Source of the DNA: Herpetosiphon geysericola
GTDB lineage: Bacteria; Chloroflexota; Chloroflexia; Chloroflexales; Herpetosiphonaceae
Assembly (NCBI RefSeq): GCF_001306135.1
Contig: NZ_LGKP01000006.1
Location: 1-64,000, forward strand
Length of the DNA: 64,000 bases
Direction: 5' to 3'
Shown here: positions 37,078 through 53,283 of the stretch, piece after piece
Position numbering within the stretch: the stretch's first letter is position 1
Layout of the letters: every line of letters starts with the position of its first letter
Position numbers and translations under genes: made by a program
Notes under the pieces: model-generated
What the model was told of the DNA's origin: nothing
The model's input: the letters and a program-made list of their open reading frames with translations, nothing else
Database searches by the model: none

Positions 37078-37083
37078 TATAAT
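37078..37083 (+). promoter_or_regulatory. -10 element of the DUF4230 gene
   Basis: A perfect TATAAT (37078-37083) lies 38 bases before ATG 37122, just after the terminator. Confidence 0.45.
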
Positions 37084-37121
37084 TGCGCGTAAGGCTATTT
37101 CATAGTGGGGAGGATAACCCT

Positions 37122-37784
37122 ATGCGAATTCGGACGACGCTCATGTTGGTGTTGGTGTTGGCGCTGATTGGCGTGGTTGGCTATGCGTTTCTATCACCAT
37201 CATTTGGTGTTGATGGAATTATGGCCAAACCAACCTCAACAATTAAGCCAGGTATGACCGTGCTCCAAGCAATCCGCCGCCAAGCTAAACTTTCAACCCT
37301 CTCGATGAGCTTCACCAAAGACACCACAATTATTCGTGAACATGGCGTTTTGGGCGCTTGTACAGAGGAAATTACCTATCTTGGCTATTTCAATGTGCAA
37401 GCAGGCATCGATTTGAGCAAAATTAGCGAAGAACGCTTAATTGTCAGCAACGATGGCTACCCCGACCAAGCAACCGTCGAAATTGTGTTGCCCGATGCCG
37501 AACTATTGAGCAACGAGCTTGATACCCAAAATAGTCGGCTGATTGCTCAAGATACGCCCAAGTGGTTGCCTGGTTGTTCACACGAAATTGCCGACATGAC
37601 CATCGAAGCCCAAAATACGCTGCGTGAGCAAGTTCGTCAAGATGCGCTGGAAAAAGGCATTCTCTCACAATCGCAGCAACAAGCTAGCGAAGAACTTGGG
37701 CGTTTATTAACTGATGTTGGCTATACAAACATCACTATTCGGGCCTCAAACGGCTCAATTCTCTACTCAACCAAACCGCAATAA
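37122..37784 (+). CDS. DUF4230 membrane-anchored protein
   Basis: 220 residues. One N-terminal helix (MRIRTTLMLVLVLALIGVV) anchors an outer domain of the DUF4230 type. The hallmark YFNVQAGIDLSKI segment is followed by VEIVLPDAELLSNELD. A long helical region (MTIEAQNTLREQVRQDALEKG) precedes the final strand YTNITIRAS. Such proteins have no known function. GGGAGG eight bases before ATG 37122 fixes the start. The MscS gene follows after 20 bases, and pxpA overlaps that, suggesting one transcript. Confidence 0.8.
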   Translation: MRIRTTLMLVLVLALIGVVGYAFLSPSFGVDGIMAKPTSTIKPGMTVLQAIRRQAKLSTLSMSFTKDTTIIREHGVLGACTEEITYLGYFNVQAGIDLSKISEERLIVSNDGYPDQATVEIVLPDAELLSNELDTQNSRLIAQDTPKWLPGCSHEIADMTIEAQNTLREQVRQDALEKGILSQSQQQASEELGRLLTDVGYTNITIRASNGSILYSTKPQ

Positions 37785-40419: not shown

Positions 40420-41508
40420 ATGGGGTACGCCGCCGATCTTTGTAATCAAGCAACTCAGCTTTTTCGGCAAGGCCAGTTTCGCAGCGCTGCGAGTTTGTTG
40501 GAGCAGGGAATTGTCGTCGCGCGCCAAGAAGCCGATAAAGATAATGAATTGCTGTGCTACCAAAAGCTGACCGCAGCCCTGATGAACTTGGACGAAAGTC
40601 AACAGGCCTTGGAGTTGGCAACCACGATGTTGGCGCGCGCGCGACAGCTGAACGAGCCACACTATGAATTAGTAGCCACGATTCGGCTCTGTAGCGCGTT
40701 GATCGACCTTGATCTCAAAGGTCGTTGGCCTGAAATTAAGTTGTTGTTGCTCGATTGTTTGCAACAAGCCGAAGCCCGCGAGACCAGTGCTTGGCAACTC
40801 GATTGTTTGCGCTTGCTTGCTGGCAACGCTATGACCATGCAAGAGTATGATGATGCCCTGAGCTATGCCCAACAGGGCTTGAGCATCATTCGCCACGATA
40901 CCTACTCCGCCGATTTCTACCGCTATGTCTTTTATCGCGTGCTCCAACGCCTGCATTCGCAGCGCGAAGAACATGCCGATGCCTTACGCTATGGCTTGCT
41001 CTCGTTTGAGTATGCTCAACGCGAAGGCAACCCTGCTTGGGTTGTGCTGGCACGGCGTTATTTGGCTCATCTCCACTATCAACAAGGCAATTTGCAAGAA
41101 GCATTTAATTTGTTTAGCGAAAATGTTGCCACAGCCTTAGCCTACGATTGTGCCAACGATCATCAAGATGCGACCATGTGGCGCGCCGAAATTGCCCTAC
41201 AATTAGAGATGGGCGAACAAGCCTTGGAGTTTGCCCGCGAAGCGCTGGCCTTGGCCCGCCAACGCTTGCACGCTCGCGATGAGGCTTGGGCGTTGTTAGC
41301 TAATGTGCGGGCGTTGTACAAATTGAATCGCAGCGATGAAGCTTGGTATTTTGCCAACGAAGCCTATTATTTTGCCCAAACCCAACAGTTTGAGCATCGG
41401 CTGAAAGAAGCCCGCGAATGGATCGAAACGCTGACCAAAAAACAAGCAGCGCCCATCGCCGCCAAGACCCAAGGCTCATGGTTTGATCGTCTAATCGGAA
41501 AGCGCTGA
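40420..41508 (+). CDS. TPR-repeat protein
   Basis: 362 residues, almost wholly helical. It starts with ADLCNQATQLFRQGQFRSAASLLEQGI, a clear TPR unit, and continues with about seven more helix-turn-helix units. Examples are ALELATTMLARARQL, ALSYAQQGLSII, ALRYGLLSFEYAQREG, AFNLFSENVATALAYD, ALEFAREALALARQRL and AWYFANEAYYFAQTQ. It ends in a basic tail. TPR proteins act as scaffolds. Only three bases separate its stop from the first HSP90-like gene, and a second follows, so the three form one unit; a co-chaperone-like role is inference. GGGAGG precedes the ATG. Confidence 0.85.
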   Translation: MGYAADLCNQATQLFRQGQFRSAASLLEQGIVVARQEADKDNELLCYQKLTAALMNLDESQQALELATTMLARARQLNEPHYELVATIRLCSALIDLDLKGRWPEIKLLLLDCLQQAEARETSAWQLDCLRLLAGNAMTMQEYDDALSYAQQGLSIIRHDTYSADFYRYVFYRVLQRLHSQREEHADALRYGLLSFEYAQREGNPAWVVLARRYLAHLHYQQGNLQEAFNLFSENVATALAYDCANDHQDATMWRAEIALQLEMGEQALEFAREALALARQRLHARDEAWALLANVRALYKLNRSDEAWYFANEAYYFAQTQQFEHRLKEAREWIETLTKKQAAPIAAKTQGSWFDRLIGKR

Positions 41509-41511
41509 GTG

Positions 41512-43296
41512 ATGAGTACTGGAACATTTCAAGTTGATTTTGAACATTTGATTCGTTTGTTGGCTGAAAATTTGTATAGCGACCCGCATGTTGCAATTCG
41601 CGAGTTGATTCAGAATGCCAGCGATTCGTGTGTGCGGCGGATTGCCCAACAAGCGCTGTTTAAGCCAGCAATTCATGTGCGCATCGAGCCAAACCAACGC
41701 TTGTTGATTGTTGAAGATAATGGCACTGGCATGGCTCGCGACGATGTGGTGCGCTATTTAGCCACAATTGGAGCCAGCCAAACCCGCCAAGTCAAATTCT
41801 CAACCGCCGATCAGAATGCTGCCCAAATGTTAATTGGCCAATTTGGGATTGGCTTTCTCTCGACCTTTGTAATTGGCCAGCAAGTAACCGTCGATACCTT
41901 GGCCGAAGGCAGCGAGCAAGCGGTGTTATGGCGCTCGCAGGGCAGCGCCGATTATAGCCTTGAGCTAGGTACGCGCCAAACCATCGGCACCACGGTCACA
42001 ATTGAGTTGGAGCCAGCCTTCTATAATTTGCTCGATGAAAGTACGTTGCGCTCGACGATCATTTGCTATGCAGATTTTATTCAATTTCCGGTTTATCTTG
42101 GCGACGATGCGCGCCCAATCAATCGCATGAACGGGCCATGGCACTTGGATGGCTCGGAGCATGAATATATCGACTATGTGCAGCATCGCTTTGGCGCTGT
42201 GCCGTTGGCAGTCGAGCCAATCGCCATTAAACAGCACAATGCAGAATGTAGCGGGGTTTTGGCAATTATGCCAAGCTCAGCAGCGCTGAAAATTCACCCC
42301 CGCAAGCTCGATGTCTTTCAGCGACGTATGTATGTTTGCGAAGATATGCAATTGTTGCCCGCTTGGGCGACGTTTGTGTGTGGCATTATCGATGCGCCGT
42401 TGCTCGAATTGGTTGCCAGTCGCGAAGGCTTTATGATCGAGCGGCCCAACTATCGGGCCTTGCGTGAAGCATTGGCCGATGCTGTGCGTTCGTTCTTAAT
42501 TCGTTTGGCCCAGCGCGAGCCAGCCACGTTTCTGCAAGTGGTCAAACAACACAATAGCGGCATAAAGCAAGCAGCGGTGAATGATAATCAATTTTTTGCA
42601 GCAGTCGCTGATTTGCTGACCTTCGAGAGCGATCTTGGCCCAATTACCTTAACCCGCTATCTTGAGCGGATTCCAGTGCGCGGTGCTGGCGAACGCACAA
42701 TTTTTTATGTGCTCAACGATTTGCCACCTAGTGCCCAGCAGCGTGCGATCGTCGGCGCACGCGGCGTGCCAGTGCTGCACGTTAATTTAATCGAAGAAAA
42801 GTTTCTGAAAAAATATTGTGCAGCCCGTCATGGCGTAAGTTTTCAGCCGCTCACCGCTGGAATCGCCGAATTGCTCGAAGCTGAAACCGACCCCCAATGG
42901 CGCAAACTCGAACAACACTGCGAACAATTGGGCATGCACGTCTATGCGATGCGCTTCGAGCCAAGCAATTTGGCGGCGTTGGCAATGCGCGCCAGCGATT
43001 ATAAACGTGAACAAGTTGTGGATAGCTTGTTGAAAGGTAGCGGAAGCCTGCTCAACTTCGTCCAATCGGTGGGGCGTAAGCGCAGCGATGATTATGTGCT
43101 GTGTCTCAACACGCTCAATCCGCTGATTCAGCAATTGCGCGATGGCCAACCGAGCGACCAACGCTGGGCAACTGTTATTCGGGCTTTGTGGGGCTATGCC
43201 TTGCTTTCTAGCGGCATCGAACTAACCCCTGAGCTAGGCGAGGCGGTGCAACATGCCCAAATGTCGCTGCTAGAGTTGGCGCTTACTCAAGGCTAA
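41512..43296 (+). CDS. Divergent HSP90 (HtpG-like) ATPase, copy 1
   Basis: 594 residues. The N-terminal GHKL ATP-binding domain has E31, N35 and D38 in ELIQNASDS, DNGTGM (69-74) and GQFGIGF (109-115), the HSP90 forms of the three nucleotide boxes. The middle domain keeps the HSP90 SRE motif (SREGFMIERP, near 303), whose arginine contacts ATP gamma-phosphate in HSP90. The C-terminal part (about 380-594) shows no clear similarity to the HtpG dimerisation domain. Total length is near HtpG (about 620), but the sequence is far diverged. ATG 41512 follows the TPR stop directly. A longer homologue follows after nine bases. Confidence 0.85.
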   Translation: MSTGTFQVDFEHLIRLLAENLYSDPHVAIRELIQNASDSCVRRIAQQALFKPAIHVRIEPNQRLLIVEDNGTGMARDDVVRYLATIGASQTRQVKFSTADQNAAQMLIGQFGIGFLSTFVIGQQVTVDTLAEGSEQAVLWRSQGSADYSLELGTRQTIGTTVTIELEPAFYNLLDESTLRSTIICYADFIQFPVYLGDDARPINRMNGPWHLDGSEHEYIDYVQHRFGAVPLAVEPIAIKQHNAECSGVLAIMPSSAALKIHPRKLDVFQRRMYVCEDMQLLPAWATFVCGIIDAPLLELVASREGFMIERPNYRALREALADAVRSFLIRLAQREPATFLQVVKQHNSGIKQAAVNDNQFFAAVADLLTFESDLGPITLTRYLERIPVRGAGERTIFYVLNDLPPSAQQRAIVGARGVPVLHVNLIEEKFLKKYCAARHGVSFQPLTAGIAELLEAETDPQWRKLEQHCEQLGMHVYAMRFEPSNLAALAMRASDYKREQVVDSLLKGSGSLLNFVQSVGRKRSDDYVLCLNTLNPLIQQLRDGQPSDQRWATVIRALWGYALLSSGIELTPELGEAVQHAQMSLLELALTQG

Positions 43297-43305
43297 GGAG
43301 TTGGT

Positions 43306-45822
43306 ATGCAACGACCTCATGGAATTCGCCAAGGTCAAATGACGATTAACGTGCCTGGCGTGATTCGCACGCTTGGCGAAAGTTTATACGCCGATCCGCA
43401 TGTGGCAATTCGCGAGTTGTTGCAAAACGCTCACGATACCTGCCTGGTGCGCCAAGCCGATGATCCAAATGCGCCGTTGCCCGAAATTCATGTGCGCTAC
43501 GACCCATTTGGCCGCAGCCTGACCATCGAAGATAACGGCACAGGCATGACCGAGGCCGAAGTCGAGCAGTTTCTCTCGGTAATTGGCGCGAGTAACACCG
43601 ATGCTGTGCGCTCGCGGCTTGAGGCTCTTGGCGAGCGCAGTTTGGCCGAGCGCTTGATTGGGCGCTTTGGCTTGGGCATGCTGGCGGCGTTTATTATTGG
43701 CGAGCGAATTGAGTTTGTAACCCGTTCGTTTCGTAGCGAAGGCGAGGCGGCAGTTTGGTGGGAATGTACTGGCGAGCAATCGTACCGAATGGGCCAAACT
43801 ACCCGCGCTACTGCTGGCACAACCGTTACGGTCGCAATCAAGCCAGGCCAAGTGCATTTGCTGCGCGAAGATGAGCTGAGTAGGCTGATTCGCTTGTTTG
43901 CCGATTTGCTTAGCGTGCCGATTTATCTTGATCCATCGCCGCGCCCAGTCAATGTGATGCAAGCACCATGGCATAGTGAAGCCAGCGACAGCGACTACAT
44001 TCGCTATTTGAACGAGCTGTATCCTAGCGAATCGGTGTTAGCGGTGATTCCGCTGAATGTCGAGGAAGATAACGGAGCTTTCAAGCTTGGCGGGGTCTTG
44101 TTTATTCCCAAACAGCCCTATTTGAATGTACGCGAACATGGCGATTTAATTGTCTATGTGCGGCGTATGTTTGTCTGTCGTGGCGAGCGCAGCTTGCTGC
44201 CAGAGTGGGCAAAGTTCGTCAAAGGTGTGGTCGAAAGCCCCAATTTACGCGAAACTACCTCGCGCGAGGCTTTGCGCCGCGATGAATATTTCGAGCGGGT
44301 GCAGCGCACCCTTGGCCAAGTGATTCTTAATTATCTTGAGCAACTGGCGCTCAACGATCAACGCTTGTTCCGCGAGATCGTCACCCAGCACAATCGGGTG
44401 ATTAAGTCGTGGGCCTTGATCTCCGACGAACTGTTTGCGCGCATAAAAGATATTGTGCTGTTTGACACTGATGCAGGGCGCATGAATTTGCCACGCTATT
44501 TTGAGCAATCGCAACTTTCGCGTAGCGGCATCAACAGCGACGATCCCCATCAACGGCTGTTGTTCTATTTCACCACGCCTGGTGGCATTGGCCAACATGC
44601 GGTGTTGTTTGCGGCCAAAGGATTGCGGGTGATCGATGCCCAATATTTTCCCGATGAACCGTTTTTGCGCCGTTATGCTGAGCTAACCGAAAATATTGGC
44701 CTGCGGCGCTTAGATGTTGGCGGCGATTTCATCTTCGAGGCGCTGACCAACAAAGATGAGCGTTGGCTTGAACTCGAAGAACGCTACGCTGAAATGGGCG
44801 TGCAAGCCCAAGTTGCGCAATATCTGCCCGAATCGATTCCTGCGGTTTTGATTTTCGCCGAAAACTCGGAAACGACCGAGCAGGTTGATACACTTTTAGC
44901 CGACCCCAATTTGAGCCAATCGATTAAGCAATTGCTGCGGGCGATGCTCGATGAGCGCAAAGCTGAGCGCAAAAGTTCTGCCAACAAAGGCATGCTCTAT
45001 TTGAATGCGCGCAATCCAGTCATTAATCAAGTGGCAACATTAAACCACTATAGCGACCCACAAATGCGCGATGTATTGATTTTTCTCTACAACAATGCGC
45101 TGATGTTGAGTGCTCAAGGCGCGCAGCGGCTCGTCAAGCCCGAACATGCCAAGCAAATTTTCGATGCGAATAATCGGGTGGCCAGCGCTTTGATGAATGC
45201 AATTACTGGCACTCCTAGCGTGATCAATCTGCCGCCAGCAACTGTTGCGCCCTATGTCTTGTTGATTAATACGCTTGGCAATGCTCAAGTTAATCAAGAA
45301 GTCCGTTCTGTGCTGGAGAGTGCGCCGTTTTTCCTGCGCGTGGTGGGAATTGACGCGGCGCTTTCGTTGACTGAACATAGTTTGCAGAGCCTACAACAGG
45401 CAGCCTGTATTGTGGTCGATGCCAGCGAGCCTGCCCAAGCAAGTTTGCTGGCGTTGGGTGCGGTTTGGGCGCTTGCCCCAAATGTGCCAATTATCGCCTT
45501 GCGTGCTGGCGAAGCTGATCGCTTGGCGATTCCGGCGATTGATGCGGTTTACGATTTGGGCGTGCGGGGTGATTCATTGCGCCACGCTTTGCAGGAACTA
45601 AATCTGGCCCAAGCAGCTAGCCGCCTGAGTGCCGCCGATTTTCTGCGCTACGAATTTGTGAGCGAGCGCTTGGCCCAAGCCTTGGCCGAACACTTCCGCA
45701 GCATCGACGAAGTGCTAAACGCCGATCCAGCAGAAGTCAGTAATTTGCTGGGTGTGCGCTTAGCGCCATTGGGCTTAATCGAGGAATTACAACGGGCGTT
45801 GCAGGAAGATCGCGACGCTTAG
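43306..45822 (+). CDS. Divergent HSP90 (HtpG-like) ATPase, copy 2, with extra C-terminal domain
   Basis: 838 residues. ATP-binding boxes are E37, N41 and D44 in ELLQNAHDT, DNGTGM (76-81) and GRFGLGM (119-125); the middle-domain SRE occurs near 319-321 (TSREALRRDEYF). It is about 240 residues longer than its upstream paralogue. Around 700-755, ACIVVDASEPAQASLLALG and NVPIIALRAGE resemble the Rossmann core of TIR-like or nucleoside deoxyribosyltransferase domains, but the usual catalytic Glu (as in YELG) is replaced by Ala. The last 60 residues look like a helix-hairpin module. Its stop codon overlaps that of the convergent phosphatase gene. GGAG precedes the ATG. Confidence 0.82.
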   Translation: MQRPHGIRQGQMTINVPGVIRTLGESLYADPHVAIRELLQNAHDTCLVRQADDPNAPLPEIHVRYDPFGRSLTIEDNGTGMTEAEVEQFLSVIGASNTDAVRSRLEALGERSLAERLIGRFGLGMLAAFIIGERIEFVTRSFRSEGEAAVWWECTGEQSYRMGQTTRATAGTTVTVAIKPGQVHLLREDELSRLIRLFADLLSVPIYLDPSPRPVNVMQAPWHSEASDSDYIRYLNELYPSESVLAVIPLNVEEDNGAFKLGGVLFIPKQPYLNVREHGDLIVYVRRMFVCRGERSLLPEWAKFVKGVVESPNLRETTSREALRRDEYFERVQRTLGQVILNYLEQLALNDQRLFREIVTQHNRVIKSWALISDELFARIKDIVLFDTDAGRMNLPRYFEQSQLSRSGINSDDPHQRLLFYFTTPGGIGQHAVLFAAKGLRVIDAQYFPDEPFLRRYAELTENIGLRRLDVGGDFIFEALTNKDERWLELEERYAEMGVQAQVAQYLPESIPAVLIFAENSETTEQVDTLLADPNLSQSIKQLLRAMLDERKAERKSSANKGMLYLNARNPVINQVATLNHYSDPQMRDVLIFLYNNALMLSAQGAQRLVKPEHAKQIFDANNRVASALMNAITGTPSVINLPPATVAPYVLLINTLGNAQVNQEVRSVLESAPFFLRVVGIDAALSLTEHSLQSLQQAACIVVDASEPAQASLLALGAVWALAPNVPIIALRAGEADRLAIPAIDAVYDLGVRGDSLRHALQELNLAQAASRLSAADFLRYEFVSERLAQALAEHFRSIDEVLNADPAEVSNLLGVRLAPLGLIEELQRALQEDRDA

Positions 45823-47369
45823 TTACGGCGCAGCACGACGACGGTCATATCGTCTTGATATTGGCCGTCGCTCCAATGGTTAGCTGCGCTCATAATTTCG
45901 TTGACCAACTGGGCTGCCGGGCGTTGGCTGAGCATACTAATTAAATTGCGCAGCCGATTCAGGCCAAATAATTCGCGTTGGCTGTTGGCGGCTTCAACCA
46001 CGCCATCGCTGACGAAAATTAAGCTCTCACCAGCTTGTAGCTCCAAGGCCGCTTCGTGGTACTGAGCGTTGGCCACAGCGCCCAAGGGAAACCCCGTCAA
46101 ATCAAGATACTCGCATTGGCCGTCTTTGCGCATATGCAAGGGCGAAATCAAGCCTGCATTGCCCAATTGCAGCTGGCCAGATTTGGCATCGAGCATGGCA
46201 TAGGCCAAGCCGGTATTGATTTTTTGCTGCGCCATGCGCCGATAAAACAGCGGATTAAGCCGATTGGCAAGGCTCAATTGGTTGCTGGGAGGGCTGTCGT
46301 GCAAGTATAAATCGATCACGCTCATGGCGATGGCCATAAAAAACGCCCCGACCACACCTTTGCCCGAAACATCGCCAACCCCAAGATACCAACGATCATC
46401 GCTCAAATCGATGACATTGAAGAAATCGCCGCCAACTTCGCGCGCTGGTTGGGTAAAGCCCGCAATTTCGTAGCCGCTGATGGCTGGCAATTGCTGGGGC
46501 AAAAAGCGTTGCTGCACCTCAGCCGCCAAGTCAAACTCGCGTTGCAAACGAGCACGCTCCGAGCGTTCCTCAATTTGGCGGAAGTTCTCCAAGACAACTT
46601 CGACTTTGCTGCCCATGGCTTCGACGGTGGCTTGCTCTTGTTTGCTAAAGCCGCCAAGCCGATTGTAGAAGGCCAATAAGCCGATTGGCTTGCCCTCTAA
46701 GCGCAGTGGCACGGCCAAGGCTGCATCGATACGCTGGCCAAAGCCAACCCGCTGAAAATCGCTGTTATTTTCGAGGCTAGTCGCCGACCAAGGCTCGTTG
46801 CGTTTGAGAATATAGGCAGCCAAGCTGGTTTGATAGGCGGCGGTGGCTTGGGCTTCAAAGCCCCAACTGGCGGCAATTCGGGCTTGGCCTTGTTCAAGCA
46901 AAATGATCTCGCCTGCTTGCGCATCGATCAATGTGCCGCCCTGTTGCAAAATCTCGCCAAGCAGTTGATCGCGCGGCAACGAACGGCCAAATAAATCGCC
47001 CATGCGGCTCAAAAATTGATACAGCTCGCGCTGGCGACTCAGCCGCCCCCAACCGCTGCCAGCAAAATAGGCCAAGACTGGCATCAAAACTAAAGTCACA
47101 ATAATTTCGATCGTTGGTGCGCCAACCAAGCCATATTTCGTTAACGAGGTTGCGACGAGCGGCGCAAACAGCAGATCGGCCAAAATGGCCACCGCCATGC
47201 TGCCCATCACGCCAAAACCCATCGCGGCGTGGGCAATTGGAATCAAATAGAGGTAGCGCAAGGCAGGCGCAGCCGCCCAACGACCTTCGCCAAGGTACAT
47301 CACAATCGTAATGGCCAAGAGCAAAAGGCTGATGCTAATCACATCACGCTGGCGGTGAGCACGATTCAT
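45819..47369 (-). CDS. Membrane GAF-PP2C (RsbU/SpoIIE-type) serine phosphatase
   Basis: 516 residues. About four membrane helices (residues 10-110) and a short linker lead to a GAF-like sensor domain (about 120-275), a coiled linker (QIEERSERARLQREFDLAAEVQQRFLPQ), and a PP2C-type phosphatase domain (about 300-516). Metal-binding motifs EVGGDFFNV, GDVSGKG, SDGVVEA and QDDMTVVVL are intact. Such enzymes dephosphorylate anti-anti-sigma factors or similar switch proteins; no such partner is in the window. Its ATG overlaps the stop of the upstream CPBP gene (TGATG), so expression is coupled. Its stop overlaps the stop of the convergent HSP90-like gene. Confidence 0.9.
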   Translation of the reverse strand: MNRAHRQRDVISISLLLLAITIVMYLGEGRWAAAPALRYLYLIPIAHAAMGFGVMGSMAVAILADLLFAPLVATSLTKYGLVGAPTIEIIVTLVLMPVLAYFAGSGWGRLSRQRELYQFLSRMGDLFGRSLPRDQLLGEILQQGGTLIDAQAGEIILLEQGQARIAASWGFEAQATAAYQTSLAAYILKRNEPWSATSLENNSDFQRVGFGQRIDAALAVPLRLEGKPIGLLAFYNRLGGFSKQEQATVEAMGSKVEVVLENFRQIEERSERARLQREFDLAAEVQQRFLPQQLPAISGYEIAGFTQPAREVGGDFFNVIDLSDDRWYLGVGDVSGKGVVGAFFMAIAMSVIDLYLHDSPPSNQLSLANRLNPLFYRRMAQQKINTGLAYAMLDAKSGQLQLGNAGLISPLHMRKDGQCEYLDLTGFPLGAVANAQYHEAALELQAGESLIFVSDGVVEAANSQRELFGLNRLRNLISMLSQRPAAQLVNEIMSAANHWSDGQYQDDMTVVVLRRN

Positions 47370-48751: not shown

Positions 48752-49705
48752 ATGAATAGACGTTTACAACCACAAGCTCAAGAGCCACAACGACGTAATC
48801 TTCCGGAACGTCTAAGCCAAGGATTTCGCATCGTTCGTCGCGCACCTTGGGTTATTTTAATGCCCATTTTGCTTGACCTCTGGCTGAGGTTACTGCCAGC
48901 TTTAGCGCCTAATCGTTGGCTTGCCAGCATTAGCAGCGTGGTCAATCGATTTAGCCGCGCTCAGAGCCAACAACTTTGGGCGCAGGCCAACGAGCTGTTG
49001 CAAACTGTCGATTTGCGTTCGAGCGCAGTCGGAACTTACCTTGTGCCAAGTTTGTTTAGCGGTGCTGGCTCGCCCTCGCTGCATAATGATGCTCCATGGC
49101 TGTTCGATGGCTGGTTGACCTTGCTCTTGGTGCTTGGGTTGAATGTGCTTGGGCTTGGCTTTAGCGCAATCGTTTTGTTCTGGCTGGGGCGCAATCTCGA
49201 TCAGGCGCAGCCTGCATGGGCAGCCCTGCCCAAACAGCTCTGGAATTTGGCCAAACTGAGCCTGATTATTGTTGGCTTAGGTTTGTTATTTGGCATCCCT
49301 GCGTTGGTTGCTGCCAGCTTTTTGCTTTCTGCCAGCGCGTTTGGGGCGCAATTGGTGCTTGCCGCCTTTGGGGTGGTGCTGATTACCCTCTGGGTTTATG
49401 CCAGCCTTGCGCCAGCAGCAATTATGCTTGGCCAACAATCTGCCTTGATTGCGCTCTATCAGAGCTACAACTTGGTACGTCAACAACCACGCGAAGCCCT
49501 CCCGCTGATTATCGCTAGCGGAGTTTTGATTCATGGGACGGCCTTTTTGCTGCGGCCACTGGCCACCAACATGATCAGCATTCTTGCAGCAAGCGCCCTG
49601 TTTGGGTTGCTGAGCTGTAGTTTACAAGCAGCCAAATTAGTCTTTTATAACGAACGTGTTGGCTCACTTGCCCACCGTTTTCCTGTTGCCCTAACACAAA
49701 AGTGA
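48752..49705 (+). CDS. Hypothetical multi-pass membrane protein upstream of gyrB
   Basis: 317 residues. A basic N-terminus (RRLQPQAQEPQRRN) is followed by a hydrophobic segment (about 35-50), an amphipathic stretch, then four to five long hydrophobic segments (about 130-160, 185-240, 265-300). The family is unknown. Translation probably starts at ATG 48752 without a leader. Its TGA (49703-49705) lies just before the gyrB ribosome-binding region, so gyrB is probably on the same transcript. Confidence 0.65.
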   Translation: MNRRLQPQAQEPQRRNLPERLSQGFRIVRRAPWVILMPILLDLWLRLLPALAPNRWLASISSVVNRFSRAQSQQLWAQANELLQTVDLRSSAVGTYLVPSLFSGAGSPSLHNDAPWLFDGWLTLLLVLGLNVLGLGFSAIVLFWLGRNLDQAQPAWAALPKQLWNLAKLSLIIVGLGLLFGIPALVAASFLLSASAFGAQLVLAAFGVVLITLWVYASLAPAAIMLGQQSALIALYQSYNLVRQQPREALPLIIASGVLIHGTAFLLRPLATNMISILAASALFGLLSCSLQAAKLVFYNERVGSLAHRFPVALTQK

Positions 49706-49716
49706 GGTTCGATTCG

Positions 49717-52700
49717 ATGGCGACAAATCCTAATCAGAGTACATACGATGCCGCTCAGATTCAAATGTTGCGTGGCTTGGAAGCAGTACGCGAAAACATG
49801 GGGATGTATCTCGGTGGCCAAGACACATCGGCCTTGCATCACTTGGTCTATGAAGTTGTCGATAACTCGGTTGACGAGGCTTTAGCTGGCTACTGCGATA
49901 CGATTATCGTCGAAATGCGCACTGACGGTTCAATTGCTGTCGTCGATAATGGGCGCGGGATTCCTACCGATATTCACCCCGTCGAAGGTCGCTCAGCGCT
50001 CGAAATTGTGCTGACTGAGCTGCACGCTGGCGGTAAATTCAAAGGCTCGCAAGGCTACAAAGTCTCAGGTGGTTTGCACGGGGTCGGGGTTTCGGCAGTT
50101 AACGCGGTTTCCGAATTTTTGCGCGCCGAAGTTAAACGCGATGGTAAATTATGGGCCCAAGATTTTCGTCTTGGCATGCCTCAAGCTCCTGTTCATCAGG
50201 TTGGCGATGCTACTGGCACGGGCACGACGATTATCTTTAAACCAGATGCCCAATTATTTACCACCGTCGAATTCAACTATCGCACCTTGTCGAACCGTTT
50301 GCGCGATATGGCCTACCTCAACAAGAGCCTACGCTTCAAGCTGATCGATTATAACAACGATCGCGAAGTAACCTACTATTTCGATGGTGGGATTGTCTCG
50401 TTCGTGCGCCATCTGACCCGCGAAAAAGGCCCATTGCTCGCGCAACCGTTCTATGTTGAAAAAGCTCATGAAAATGTTAATGTTGAAATTGCCATGCAAT
50501 ACACTGGCGATTTCAACGAAAATCTTTTAGCCTTTACCAACAACATTGCTAATCCCGATGGTGGCACGCACGTTACTGGCTATCGCGCTGCCCTAACCCG
50601 AACGATCAATGCCTATGGCCGCAGCAAAGGCTTGCTCAAAGAAGGCGATACGCTCTCTGGCGAAGATGTGCGCGAAGGTTTGACTGCAATTATTAGCATC
50701 AAACTGTTCCGCCCTCAATTCGAAAGCCAAACCAAATCGAAGTTGGCCACGCCAGAAGCTAAAACCGCAGTCGAAACGGTGCTCAATGAAGCCCTGTCGG
50801 GCTTTTTGGATGAAAATCCCAACGAAGCCCGCCGGATCATCGAAAAATCGCTTTTGGCTTCGCGTGCGCGTGATGCAGCCCGCAAGGCCCGCGATTTGGT
50901 GCAACGCAAAGGCGCACTCGAAGGCTTCGCCTTGCCTGGCAAGCTTGCTGACTGCTCGGATAAAGAGCCAGCCCACTGCGAAATCTTCATCGTCGAAGGC
51001 GATAGTGCAGGTGGAAGCGCGAAACAAGGCCGTGATCGGCGGTTCCAAGCAATTTTGCCTTTGCGCGGTAAAATTCTGAACGTAGAAAAATCACGTTTGG
51101 ATAAAATGCTTGCCAATAACGAAGTTCGTGCATTAATTACTGCACTTGGCACTGGTATTGGCGAAACATTCGATATTTCGCGCTTGCGCTACCATCGCAT
51201 CTTGATTATGAGCGTTGCTGGCGATGAACCAACCCTGATTCGTAATGGTCAAGGCCATACTGAATTTGTACGGATTGGCGAATTTATCGATCAATGTATT
51301 GCAGGCCAACGCCAGGCAAGCGAGTACGAAGTCATTAGCTTCGACCAAAAACGCAATCTTGCGCGCTTCCGCCCACTCAAAGCAGTGATGCGTCACGCCA
51401 ACCACGAGCCAATGTACAAACTTAGCACGCGCTATGGCCGTTCAGTCAAAGTAACTGCCTCGCATAGTGTGTTTGTGCTTGAAAATGGCCAGCCAGTCTT
51501 GAAAAAAGGCAATCAGATCAAACTTGGTGATCAATTGGTTGCCAGTCGCCGCATTCCACGGCCAGCAATTCAACCTCGCGAAATCGACCTGATCAAGTTG
51601 TTTGCTGAAGCAGGCTTGATTGATAATCTTTATCTGCGGGGTGAAAGTGTGCGCGCGATTGCTGCTCAGCGAGTGCTAAACAATGTTTCGCAGCCTGAGC
51701 AATGGAACGAAGCCCGCATTAGCTTGCATACTGCTGCGTGGGAACGTTTGGTTGAATATCGCCAAGCCCATGGCTTAAGCCAAAAAATGGTTGCTCAACG
51801 GCTTGGGGTGAAGCAAGCAATTACGATTAGCCAATGGGAACGTGGCATGTTGCGGCCTATTCAATCGCAATTTGATAACTACTTGGCAACGATTGGCTGG
51901 GAAGAACCAATTAGCTATGAGCTAGTGCCTTCGAAGCTTGAGCGTTTGTTGTTGCAAGATGATAGCAGTGCCAATGCACGTTGGCGTGAAGTCAGTAACT
52001 ACAAAGCTTTTAATAGCTTCAACAACGATGAGCTAGATTTGCTTGATCGTGATGTCGAGCTTGTGCCGCAAGCCCACGACGATCGCGCCTTCCCTCGGAT
52101 GTTGGCGATCACGCCAGAATTGCTGTGGTTCTTGGGCTGGTTTACTGCCGAAGGTTCCTTGAGCAAACATCAAGTTAGTTTATCGTTAGGCCAAAAAGAT
52201 GCAGCCTTCTTCGCTGAGCTAAAAACCACAATTGAACAGCTTTTTGGTGAAACGCCACGTTTCTATCAATCGCCCGATAATGGCGGCATTAAATGCTACT
52301 TCCATAGCGTTTTGGCAGCTCGTTTGATTCGTGCTTTGGGCTTGGGTGCGGTTGCCCATCAAAAACAAGTGCCTAATATGCTCTTCAGCTTGAGCAGCGA
52401 TTTACAGCGCAGCTATCTCGAAGGCTATTTTCTTGGTGATGGCACGCTCTGTGATAGCACCATTAGCATGACAACCAACTCGCCTGAACTCAAAGATGGC
52501 TTACTCTACTTATTTGGTCAACTTGGCATTTTTGCTGGCGTGAGCAACATCAAGCCCAACTTGCCAGCCGATGCACCAATTCAAACTGTGCACGACTACT
52601 ACAACATTGCAATTAGTGGCAAGCAACAGCTAGAACAATTGCGTAGCGTTTGGCAACGCCATCATCTGGCCGCCAAAGTCGAAGCCCATTTGGCTAAACC

Positions 52701-53283
52701 AACCACCAAAGCCCAAGCCTTCACGCCAATCAGCGACGATATGGTTGGCTTAGAAGTCTTAGCGGTTGAAGAATTAGCCCCAACTGGTGAGTTTGTCTAC
52801 GACTTCTCAGTCGAAGAAGACGAAAACTTCTTGTGTGGCACTGGTGGTTTGTATGCTCACAATACCGATGCTGATGTGGATGGAAGTCACATCCGCACCT
52901 TGCTGCTGACCTTCTTCTTCCGCCATATGCGTGATTTGATTACCAATGGCCACTTGTATGTTGCCCAACCACCACTGTTCCGGGTGCAACATGGCAAGGC
53001 CTACAAATATGTCTACGATGAAGCAACCCGCGATGAATATATTCGTTCATTGCCAGCTGGCACTAAAGTCATCGTTCAGCGCTTTAAAGGGCTTGGCGAA
53101 ATGAACCCCGACCAATTGTGGGACACGACGCTCAACCCTGGCAATCGCATGATTTTGCAGGTGACGATTGAAGATGCGCTAGCTGCCGATGAAACCTTCT
53201 CAATGTTGATGGGTGAAATTGTTTTGCCGCGCAAACGCTTTATCCAAACCCACGCCGCCGACGTGAAAAACTTGGATGTTTAG
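49717..53283 (+). CDS. gyrB: DNA gyrase subunit B containing an intein
   Basis: 1188 codons: a 637-residue GyrB interrupted by a 551-residue intein. The ATPase domain has EVVDNSVDEALAGY, DNGRGIPTDIHP and GGLHGVGVSAVNAVS. The TOPRIM domain has VEGDSAGGSAKQGRD, PLRGKILNVEK and, after the intein, TDADVDGSHIRTLLLTFFFR with the magnesium-binding DxDxD. It ends RKRFIQTHAADVKNLDV, typical of GyrB. With GyrA it introduces negative supercoils. Without splicing the active site would be split, so splicing is needed for activity. GTGAGG nine bases before ATG 49717 supports that start; a GTG at 49702 is the alternative. Confidence 0.96.
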   Translation: MATNPNQSTYDAAQIQMLRGLEAVRENMGMYLGGQDTSALHHLVYEVVDNSVDEALAGYCDTIIVEMRTDGSIAVVDNGRGIPTDIHPVEGRSALEIVLTELHAGGKFKGSQGYKVSGGLHGVGVSAVNAVSEFLRAEVKRDGKLWAQDFRLGMPQAPVHQVGDATGTGTTIIFKPDAQLFTTVEFNYRTLSNRLRDMAYLNKSLRFKLIDYNNDREVTYYFDGGIVSFVRHLTREKGPLLAQPFYVEKAHENVNVEIAMQYTGDFNENLLAFTNNIANPDGGTHVTGYRAALTRTINAYGRSKGLLKEGDTLSGEDVREGLTAIISIKLFRPQFESQTKSKLATPEAKTAVETVLNEALSGFLDENPNEARRIIEKSLLASRARDAARKARDLVQRKGALEGFALPGKLADCSDKEPAHCEIFIVEGDSAGGSAKQGRDRRFQAILPLRGKILNVEKSRLDKMLANNEVRALITALGTGIGETFDISRLRYHRILIMSVAGDEPTLIRNGQGHTEFVRIGEFIDQCIAGQRQASEYEVISFDQKRNLARFRPLKAVMRHANHEPMYKLSTRYGRSVKVTASHSVFVLENGQPVLKKGNQIKLGDQLVASRRIPRPAIQPREIDLIKLFAEAGLIDNLYLRGESVRAIAAQRVLNNVSQPEQWNEARISLHTAAWERLVEYRQAHGLSQKMVAQRLGVKQAITISQWERGMLRPIQSQFDNYLATIGWEEPISYELVPSKLERLLLQDDSSANARWREVSNYKAFNSFNNDELDLLDRDVELVPQAHDDRAFPRMLAITPELLWFLGWFTAEGSLSKHQVSLSLGQKDAAFFAELKTTIEQLFGETPRFYQSPDNGGIKCYFHSVLAARLIRALGLGAVAHQKQVPNMLFSLSSDLQRSYLEGYFLGDGTLCDSTISMTTNSPELKDGLLYLFGQLGIFAGVSNIKPNLPADAPIQTVHDYYNIAISGKQQLEQLRSVWQRHHLAAKVEAHLAKPTTKAQAFTPISDDMVGLEVLAVEELAPTGEFVYDFSVEEDENFLCGTGGLYAHNTDADVDGSHIRTLLLTFFFRHMRDLITNGHLYVAQPPLFRVQHGKAYKYVYDEATRDEYIRSLPAGTKVIVQRFKGLGEMNPDQLWDTTLNPGNRMILQVTIEDALAADETFSMLMGEIVLPRKRFIQTHAADVKNLDV
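51211..52863 (+). other. Intein within gyrB, with LAGLIDADG endonuclease and HTH insert
   Basis: 551 codons. It starts with Ser (AGC 51211) in SVAGDEPTLIR (block A) and ends GLYAHN (AAT 52861-52863), followed by Thr +1 of the extein. Block B is KVTASHSVFVL with the conserved T-x-x-H. Block F/G is EFVYDFSVEEDENFLCGTGGLYAHN. Two LAGLIDADG motifs are LLWFLGWFTAEGS (about 52120) and YLEGYFLGDGT (about 52420), so a homing endonuclease is present and looks intact. Between block B and the endonuclease lies an XRE-type helix-turn-helix (GLSQKMVAQRLGVKQAITISQWERG). It is inserted immediately before the TOPRIM TDADVDG. Confidence 0.93.

What the first reader, a model, noticed from the sequence alone, without database searches (positions are those of the whole stretch)
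40420..45822. TPR gene plus two divergent HSP90-type ATPases as one unit
Three bases separate the TPR gene from HSP90-like copy 1, and nine bases separate copy 1 from copy 2. Both keep all ATP-site boxes and the middle-domain SRE but lack a recognisable HtpG dimerisation end. In eukaryotes TPR proteins are HSP90 co-chaperones, and a bacterial operon pairing TPR with two unequal HSP90-like ATPases could be a heteromeric chaperone or a defence/stress module. I know no described system of this shape.
Basis: partly seen in the sequence, partly recalled or inferred. Interest (0 to 1): 0.75.

Follow-up and report, generated by a model that had tools for sequence, protein, structure and literature searches.

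The report
Bacterial HSP90 operon with TPR partner
A soil bacterium carries, side by side, a repeat-protein gene and two unusual relatives of the HSP90 folding machine, and a similar partnership turns up across many bacterial phyla, often with a nucleotide-cutting type of domain attached, which hints at a little-studied bacterial HSP90 system.

Summary
The unit is real and is not ordinary HtpG. TPR (40420-41508), copy 1 (41512-43296) and copy 2 (43306-45822) are packed with 3- and 9-base gaps and kept in 6 of 6 sampled Herpetosiphon genomes. TPR-HSP90-HSP90 recurs in a Thermoflexus-like lineage; another lineage has HSP90-HSP90-TPR. The copies lie outside HtpG (support 100/100); the genome has a separate HtpG. 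A TPR-family gene adjoins 52 of 80 relatives, in 12 phyla, against 0 of 37 HtpG genes; homologous pairs occur in E. coli, Salmonella, Xanthomonas and Pseudomonas. Its active-site Glu is kept in 24 of 24 aligned tails from other lineages but is Ala in 4 of 4 Herpetosiphon tails. Best reading: a dedicated HSP90-TPR machine, in some lineages gating a nucleotide-cleaving effector; in Herpetosiphon a domesticated form with that domain dead. Defence is plausible but untested; sampled neighbourhoods show no defence enrichment.

The parts
40420..41508 (+). TPR protein, 362 aa, alpha-solenoid
   Evidence: Pfam TPR_12 7.4e-9; AlphaFold2 pLDDT 91, about 16 antiparallel helices; nearest solved folds listed: LGN/Pins Z 29.7; also Tom71 Z 22.7, NprR Z 22.4
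41512..43296 (+). HSP90-family ATPase copy 1, 594 aa (595 aa if GTG 41509 is the start)
   Evidence: groups with HSP90-1 of the Thermoflexus-like lineage L047/L077, support 100/99
43297..43300 (+). GGAG, Shine-Dalgarno-like site before copy 2
   Evidence: read from the sequence
43306..45822 (+). HSP90-family ATPase copy 2 with C-terminal extension, 838 aa
   Evidence: groups with L047 HSP90-2, support 100/98
43306..45219 (+). copy 2 residues 1-638: N, middle and C-terminal (dimerisation) domains of the HSP90 fold
   Evidence: model aligned to TRAP1 over 14-638 (Z 28.2) and E. coli HtpG over 4-635 (Z 23.5, rmsd 14.8)
45250..45600 (+). copy 2 residues about 649-765: degenerate TIR/DRHyd-superfamily domain (motif PAQASLLALG from residue 709, Glu replaced by Ala)
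   Evidence: profile of this part made without Herpetosiphon rows: 19.3 bits, E 3.9e-5, best of 1000 shuffles 6.0; whole tail 34.4 bits, E 8e-10; Glu in 24 of 24 other tails, Ala in 4 of 4. No Pfam TIR or NDT hit for copy 2 itself at E up to 1
45631..45819 (+). copy 2 residues about 776-838: helical tail, helix-hairpin-helix-like
   Evidence: 24.5 bits, E 1.3e-6, best of 1000 shuffles 6.2; Pfam HHH_2 0.011 and HHH_5 0.016, below cut-off

Best explanation
The unit encodes a dedicated HSP90-family machine that is separate from the cell's housekeeping HtpG. Two diverged HSP90 subunits, each with the ATP-site residues and a C-terminal dimerisation domain, act with a TPR superhelix encoded in the same operon. 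Inferred mechanism: the TPR protein recruits or senses a peptide, client or ligand and couples it to the ATP-driven open/close cycle of the HSP90 dimer (homo- or heterodimers of copies 1 and 2). In about a third of the relatives examined the HSP90 carries at its dimer end a TIR/nucleotide N-hydrolase (DRHyd) domain, so the clamp cycle would bring two such domains together or apart and thereby gate cleavage of a nucleotide or NAD: a chaperone-gated signalling or conflict module. In Herpetosiphon the DRHyd domain of copy 2 has lost its active-site Glu but is under purifying selection, so there it most likely works as a binding or regulatory domain in a domesticated version. Shown here: gene unit, predicted fold, ATP-site residues, family separation, TPR linkage, DRHyd homology and loss of Glu. 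Inferred: operon transcription, physical complex, heterodimer, gating, client.
For: Unit and spacing. Conserved in 6 of 6 sampled same-genus genomes, HSP90s 88.7-98.0% identical; the 34 other sampled genomes of the order show at most one match, at HtpG level. TPR-HSP90-HSP90 in L047/L077 (near-identical, one lineage) and HSP90-HSP90-TPR in L048. Copies fall outside HtpG; separate HtpG in the same genome. TPR-family gene on the same strand within 400 nt: 52 of 80 relatives, 0 of 37 HtpG, 0 of 4 NF010683-positive genes, Fisher 4.9e-13. In E. coli the HSP90-like gene and its TPR-type neighbour are each found in 245 of 5,426 complete genomes, adjacent in both loci opened. DRHyd/TIR assignment of 28 tails at E up to 0.1: Pfam CAP12-PCTIR_TIR 11 and Nuc_deoxyrib_tr 9, PADLOC TIR effector 14, best 8e-15; solved DNPH1/Rcl with the ELG motif aligned, 6.4e-7. 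dN/dS 0.01-0.035 for the HSP90 part of copy 2, 0.07-0.09 for its tail, 0.06-0.07 copy 1, 0.11 TPR, against 0.01-0.04 for the phosphoribosyltransferase and 0.16-0.18 for the YcsF gene.
Against: 28 of 80 relatives have no TPR-family gene at the 400-nt, score-150 setting, among them most Competibacteraceae; some contigs end close by, but several have about 10 kb on both sides. TPR genes are common in Herpetosiphon (48 matched stretches), so adjacency in one genome alone would be weak. The TPR families were defined from neighbours of the HSP90-like genes, which favours them over the HtpG control, and most of the control loci are from Chloroflexota. No evidence of a physical complex or of transcription; the promoter scan was near shuffle level. 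About two thirds of the HSP90-like ORFs have no tail of 150 residues, so DRHyd gating cannot be the shared core function. The part of copy 2 beyond 640 is modelled at block pLDDT 43-83. dS near or above 1 in most comparisons makes the dN/dS values rough.
Confidence: 0.6

Rival explanations
1. Anti-phage or conflict system: the HSP90-TPR pair is a threshold-setting sensor that releases a TIR/DRHyd nucleotide-cleaving effector on infection; the Herpetosiphon copy is a decayed or decoy form.
For: TIR/DRHyd tails with the Glu in 24 of 24 aligned tails outside Herpetosiphon, matching CBASS/Pycsar TIR effector profiles. Operons with TIR_2 proteins (L076, L077), DRHyd-EAD8-trypsin (L186) and trypsin-DRHyd (L097, L118). 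A cyanobacterial plasmid copy near TIR, vWA and AAA ATPase genes. EAD8, trypsin, TIR and DRHyd are named among conflict-system domains in PMC7159879 and PMC8195603 (passages). Patchy spread over phyla and in 245 of 5,426 E. coli.
Against: No defence-gene enrichment: PADLOC matched 17 families in 121 sampled neighbour ORFs of relatives against 20 families in 121 neighbour ORFs of HtpG. In Herpetosiphon the locus is fixed, under strong purifying selection, and its Glu is lost. The DRHyd fused to trypsin in L097 also lacks the Glu. In the three E. coli and Salmonella loci opened the pair lies near fdhD. No phage data.
Confidence: 0.25
2. Stress chaperone: a specialised heat or redox HSP90 with its own TPR co-chaperone, folding particular clients; the DRHyd tail is incidental.
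For: HSP90 fold and ATP-site residues; strong constraint; Tom70/Tom71, TPR receptors for chaperones (recalled), are among the nearest folds of the TPR model (Z 22.2 and 22.7); in the Xanthomonas plasmid copy the pair lies upstream of STAS and anti-sigma-factor genes.
Against: In P. aeruginosa heat-shock RNA-seq htpG rose (log2 2.83) while PA1069 fell (log2 -1.98) (PMC4957987, passage); that PA1069 is the TPR-type partner is my recall of the PAO1 gene order.
Confidence: 0.25
3. Ordinary HtpG duplication beside an unrelated TPR gene.
For: HSP90 domains are plainly homologous; TPR genes are common in the genome.
Against: Tree separates HtpG with 100/100; order conserved in other lineages; TPR linkage 52 of 80 against 0 of 37.
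Confidence: 0.03

Closest known systems
HtpG, bacterial HSP90 (NF003555 / PRK05218; E. coli b0473)
   Same: N, middle and C-terminal domain fold, ATP-site residues, Arg of SRE
   Different: separate clade with 100/100 support; below the curated cut-off (260 and 263 against 371 bits); TPR gene alongside; extra DRHyd domain in copy 2
NF010683 / PRK14083 'HSP90 family protein' (probably within what PMC1525184 calls HTPG Group C; that equation is my inference)
   Same: best curated match over most of the length (300.7 and 303.3 bits); same side of the tree as the family
   Different: below the cut-off of 455; four true members form their own clade and have no TPR neighbour found (0 of 4)
Eukaryotic HSP90 with TPR co-chaperones (Hop/Sti1, FKBP51)
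   Same: HSP90 linked with TPR proteins; Tom70/Tom71 are among the folds listed near the TPR model
   Different: no C-terminal EEVD; top-ranked folds are LGN/Pins superhelices; partner gene adjoins the HSP90 gene
TIR / DRHyd (DNPH1/Rcl, Nuc_deoxyrib_tr) and CBASS/Pycsar TIR effectors
   Same: domain and ELG motif in relatives; weaker but significant match in copy 2
   Different: fused to HSP90; catalytic Glu lost in Herpetosiphon
Ternary and EAD conflict systems (PMC7159879, PMC8195603)
   Same: ATPase chaperone theme, TIR/DRHyd, EAD8, trypsin, TPR
   Different: cores there are MoxR-vWA, STAND and others; 'HSP90' and 'HtpG' do not occur in the held main texts

Membership tests
HtpG | three-domain HSP90 fold with C-terminal dimerisation domain | tested here: met
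   copy 2 model against TRAP1 and HtpG; copy 1 only by near full-length profile match
HtpG | curated score of NF003555 (371 bits) | tested here: not met
   260 and 263 bits
HtpG | groups with HtpG in a tree | tested here: not met
   100/100 branch between them;
NF010683 / PRK14083 | curated score 455 bits | tested here: not met
   300.7 and 303.3 bits; no match over cut-off in the genome
HSP90-family ATPase | ATP-site Glu, Asn, Asp, lid glycines and middle-domain Arg (roles recalled) | tested here: met
   invariant in 45 rows
Eukaryotic HSP90-TPR co-chaperone pair | MEEVD tail on HSP90 | tested here: not met
   EEVD in 0 of 98 HSP90-like ORFs, a set that includes three NF010683 proteins and a few duplicate loci; window copies end LALTQG and QEDRDA
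Eukaryotic HSP90-TPR co-chaperone pair | physical TPR-HSP90 interaction | not testable with these tools
   needs pull-down
TIR/DRHyd enzymes | sequence homology of the domain | tested here: met
   DRHyd part alone 19.3 bits, E 3.9e-5, shuffles at most 6.0; whole tail 34.4 bits
TIR/DRHyd enzymes | catalytic Glu in the ELG motif | tested here: not met
   Ala in 4 of 4 Herpetosiphon tails; Glu in 24 of 24 others
Known anti-phage defence systems (PADLOC 2.0.0) | matches a listed HSP90-TPR system | tested here: inconclusive
   only ATPase-domain hits to TmtA and REase_II models and a generic TPR model
Known anti-phage defence systems (PADLOC 2.0.0) | lies among defence genes | tested here: inconclusive
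   family level: no enrichment over HtpG neighbours in samples of 121 ORFs each; the window's own neighbours were scanned with Pfam only

The most novel reading that the evidence does not exclude
Bacteria have their own HSP90-TPR systems, spread over at least 12 phyla and with homologous pairs in E. coli and Pseudomonas, in some of which an HSP90 clamp gates a TIR/DRHyd nucleotide-cleaving effector. This would be a chaperone-controlled immune or cell-suicide switch, parallel to HSP90 control of TIR-NLR receptors in plants (recalled). Herpetosiphon keeps a domesticated two-subunit version.
Probability: 0.27. Interest if true: 0.88.

Novelty: new variant of a known kind. Interest (0 to 1): 0.68.

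Why it matters
Bacterial HSP90 is usually discussed as HtpG, without TPR co-chaperones (my general knowledge). A second HSP90 family with an adjoining TPR partner gene, found from Planctomycetes to E. coli, would give a simple system for asking how TPR proteins steer an HSP90 clamp. In the DRHyd-bearing members it would test whether an HSP90 cycle can switch a nucleotide-cleaving enzyme. The presence of homologous pairs in E. coli strains and in Pseudomonas makes it testable with ordinary genetics.

Tried and rejected
Rejected: plain HtpG duplication. Rejected: MEEVD-type TPR binding. Corrected on the way: hits of my HSP90 profile in the trypsin ORFs of L097, L118 and in L186 first looked like GHKL domains; they are the DRHyd tail, because the profile contained it. 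Dropped as spurious: 'TPR' hits beside HtpG in L142 and L165 at score 100-145 are methyltransferase-like by eye and come from jackhmmer drift; they count as 2 of 37 at score 100 and 0 of 37 at 150. Greedy ORF picking hid genes in GC-rich loci, so counts are quoted; an earlier count on greedy ORFs gave 45 of 79 within 330 nt against 0 of 32. Pfam scored seven cluster-1 TPR proteins weakly (three) or without any TPR hit (four); profile-profile comparison placed the cluster with the Herpetosiphon TPR (97.8% probability, E 1.2e-12). phmmer with one DRHyd tail alone found nothing significant among solved structures; the profile did. The whole-model fold comparison tested residues 1-638 only; no solved fold was listed for the tail, which is not evidence of absence. 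The PADLOC neighbour comparison (17 against 20 families) gave no defence enrichment.

Led nowhere: literature for this arrangement. Searches showed no paper describing a bacterial HSP90-TPR operon or an HSP90-DRHyd fusion in their listings. The library lacks most subscription papers, and Burroughs 2015 was not held. A promoter and terminator scan was near the level of shuffles (10 against 6.1 and 10 against 10.8).
Full report
What is there. The window lies in a genome (handle G000) whose nearest named loci are Herpetosiphon giganteus, H. llansteffanensis and H. aurantiacus. Three genes run in one direction: a 362-aa TPR protein (40420-41508), an HSP90-like protein of 594 or 595 aa (ATG 41512 or GTG 41509 to 43296) and a second of 838 aa (43306-45822). 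They follow a phosphoribosyltransferase gene by 71 bases and overlap by 4 bases a convergent GAF-SpoIIE phosphatase gene. The housekeeping HtpG is on another contig and falls among HtpG rows (L127).

ATP-site boxes and the SRE arginine are kept. The claim that the dimerisation end is missing does not hold: copy 1 matches NF010683 almost end to end (6-598 of 604), and the model of copy 2 aligns with TRAP1 and HtpG through their C-terminal domains, the latter with a large rmsd of 14.8. The TPR model is confident and lies nearest LGN/Pins; Tom71/Tom70, the RNPP sensor NprR and Rap proteins are also listed.

A distinct family. Neither copy reaches the HtpG or NF010683 cut-off. In a 129-row quick tree and a 47-row careful tree (LG+C20), HtpG rows, E. 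coli HtpG among them, are separated from the HSP90-like rows with support 100. In the quick tree two further rows, L147 and L150, fall on the HtpG side. Four NF010683 proteins over cut-off form their own clade on the HSP90-like side; whether the TPR-linked rows are one clade without them is open (p-AU 0.366). Some genomes carry HtpG, NF010683 and a member of this family together (G404). Copy 1 and copy 2 are old paralogues: each groups with its own counterpart in the MAGs L047/L077 (near-identical to each other, so one lineage; L077's second HSP90 is cut by the contig end and was not in the tree), and copy 2 also with an L048 protein.

TPR linkage. One scan gave 350 matching stretches, 316 of them relatives; the best 80 loci were kept, so counts are of that capped set. 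Neighbouring ORFs fell into two large TPR clusters of 29 and 13 proteins; profile comparison links cluster 1, and nine members of cluster 0, to the Herpetosiphon TPR. On six-frame ORFs, a same-strand TPR-family ORF within 400 nt was found in 52 of 80 loci at score 150 (51 of 80 at 300), 0 of 37 HtpG loci and 0 of 4 NF010683 loci. The script put it upstream in seven (three Herpetosiphon, L047, L077, L118, L122) and downstream in 44 at score 300; L097, whose TPR overlaps the HSP90 start from upstream, was among the 44. The 12 phyla are read from the tree labels, and each has a TPR-positive locus. Caveat: TPR seeds came from HSP90-like neighbours. Support from annotation: TPR genes follow the relatives on the Pseudanabaena and Xanthomonas plasmids, and the 764-774-aa partners in Pseudomonas, Salmonella and Xanthomonas are homologous to partners in Ktedonobacteria, Anaerolineae or Planctomycetes. 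In E. coli each gene occurs in 245 of 5,426 complete genomes, between fdhD and yiiG in the two loci opened; Salmonella Infantis SARB27 has its copy about 3 kb after an FdhD gene.

The extra domain. 28 tails of 150 residues or more were collected (24 from other lineages, 4 Herpetosiphon); they come from 27 of 82 HSP90-like ORFs plus the window. Pfam, PADLOC and solved structures agree on the TIR/nucleotide N-hydrolase superfamily. Copy 2 alone shows no such Pfam hit, but a profile built without Herpetosiphon recognises its tail (E 8e-10), and the DRHyd part and the helical part each do so on their own (19.3 and 24.5 bits, shuffles at most 6.2). The active-site Glu is E in 24 of 24 others and A in 4 of 4 Herpetosiphon. 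The genome holds only one weak further match to the tail profile (E 0.005). dN/dS in the tail is 0.07-0.09, so it is kept although the Glu is gone.

Function. Some operons add TIR_2 (L076, L077), DRHyd-EAD8-trypsin (L186) or trypsin-DRHyd (L097, L118) proteins; the L097 trypsin-DRHyd has Met in place of the Glu. TIR_2-like ORFs also lie in L096 and L119, weakly in L115 (E 8.5e-4), and none was found in HtpG control loci. These are domains of predicted conflict systems in PMC7159879 and PMC8195603 (passages seen). Against this, PADLOC families among 121 of 428 eligible neighbour ORFs were no richer than among 121 of 237 HtpG-neighbour ORFs, and the Herpetosiphon locus looks like a stable, constrained locus. 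I therefore put the general claim (dedicated HSP90-TPR machine) well above the defence claim.

Literature. PMC1525184 (passages) divides HTPG into groups A-C; 'TPR' does not occur in its held text. PMC11687934 (passages) describes MEEVD as the TPR motif of cytosolic eukaryotic HSP90. PMC7688965 (start of abstract in a listing) says bacteria lack a Hop orthologue. PMC13092281 (passages) names HATPase and TPR domains among predicted defence systems in a figure legend, without HSP90; whether that is this pair I cannot tell. That PA1068-PA1069 are the PAO1 pair is recalled; in the three papers of that search that I opened, PA1069 appears in expression or pull-down tables (passages).

Noticed in passing
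window 49702-53283: GyrB ORF of 1193 aa looks interrupted by an intein-like insert (from SVAGDEP after RILIM to HN before TDADVDGSH), seemingly with a helix-turn-helix stretch; judged by eye from the translation.
   Followed up: no
window 45819-47369: GAF-SpoIIE phosphatase gene converges on copy 2 with a 4-base overlap; the same arrangement is kept in the five other Herpetosiphon loci fetched.
   Followed up: partly
L191 (Xanthomonas vasicola plasmid pXVH29): HSP90-like plus TPR pair upstream of two STAS genes, an anti-sigma factor and ATP-binding proteins, stressosome-like.
   Followed up: no
L190 (Pseudanabaena plasmid ABRG53a): HSP90-DRHyd, a stand-alone 232-aa DRHyd protein, a TPR protein, then vWA and AAA ATPase genes, with a TIR gene on the other side.
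   Followed up: partly
L116:6437-12607: Nonomuraea ORF of 2056 aa has about 1170 residues without any Pfam match at E 0.01 before the HSP90-DRHyd part; it may be a fusion or an ORF artefact.
   Followed up: partly
L034:2933-4318: The H. llansteffanensis contig has two tandem versions of the gene at window 37083-37784 (32% and 62% identity).
   Followed up: no
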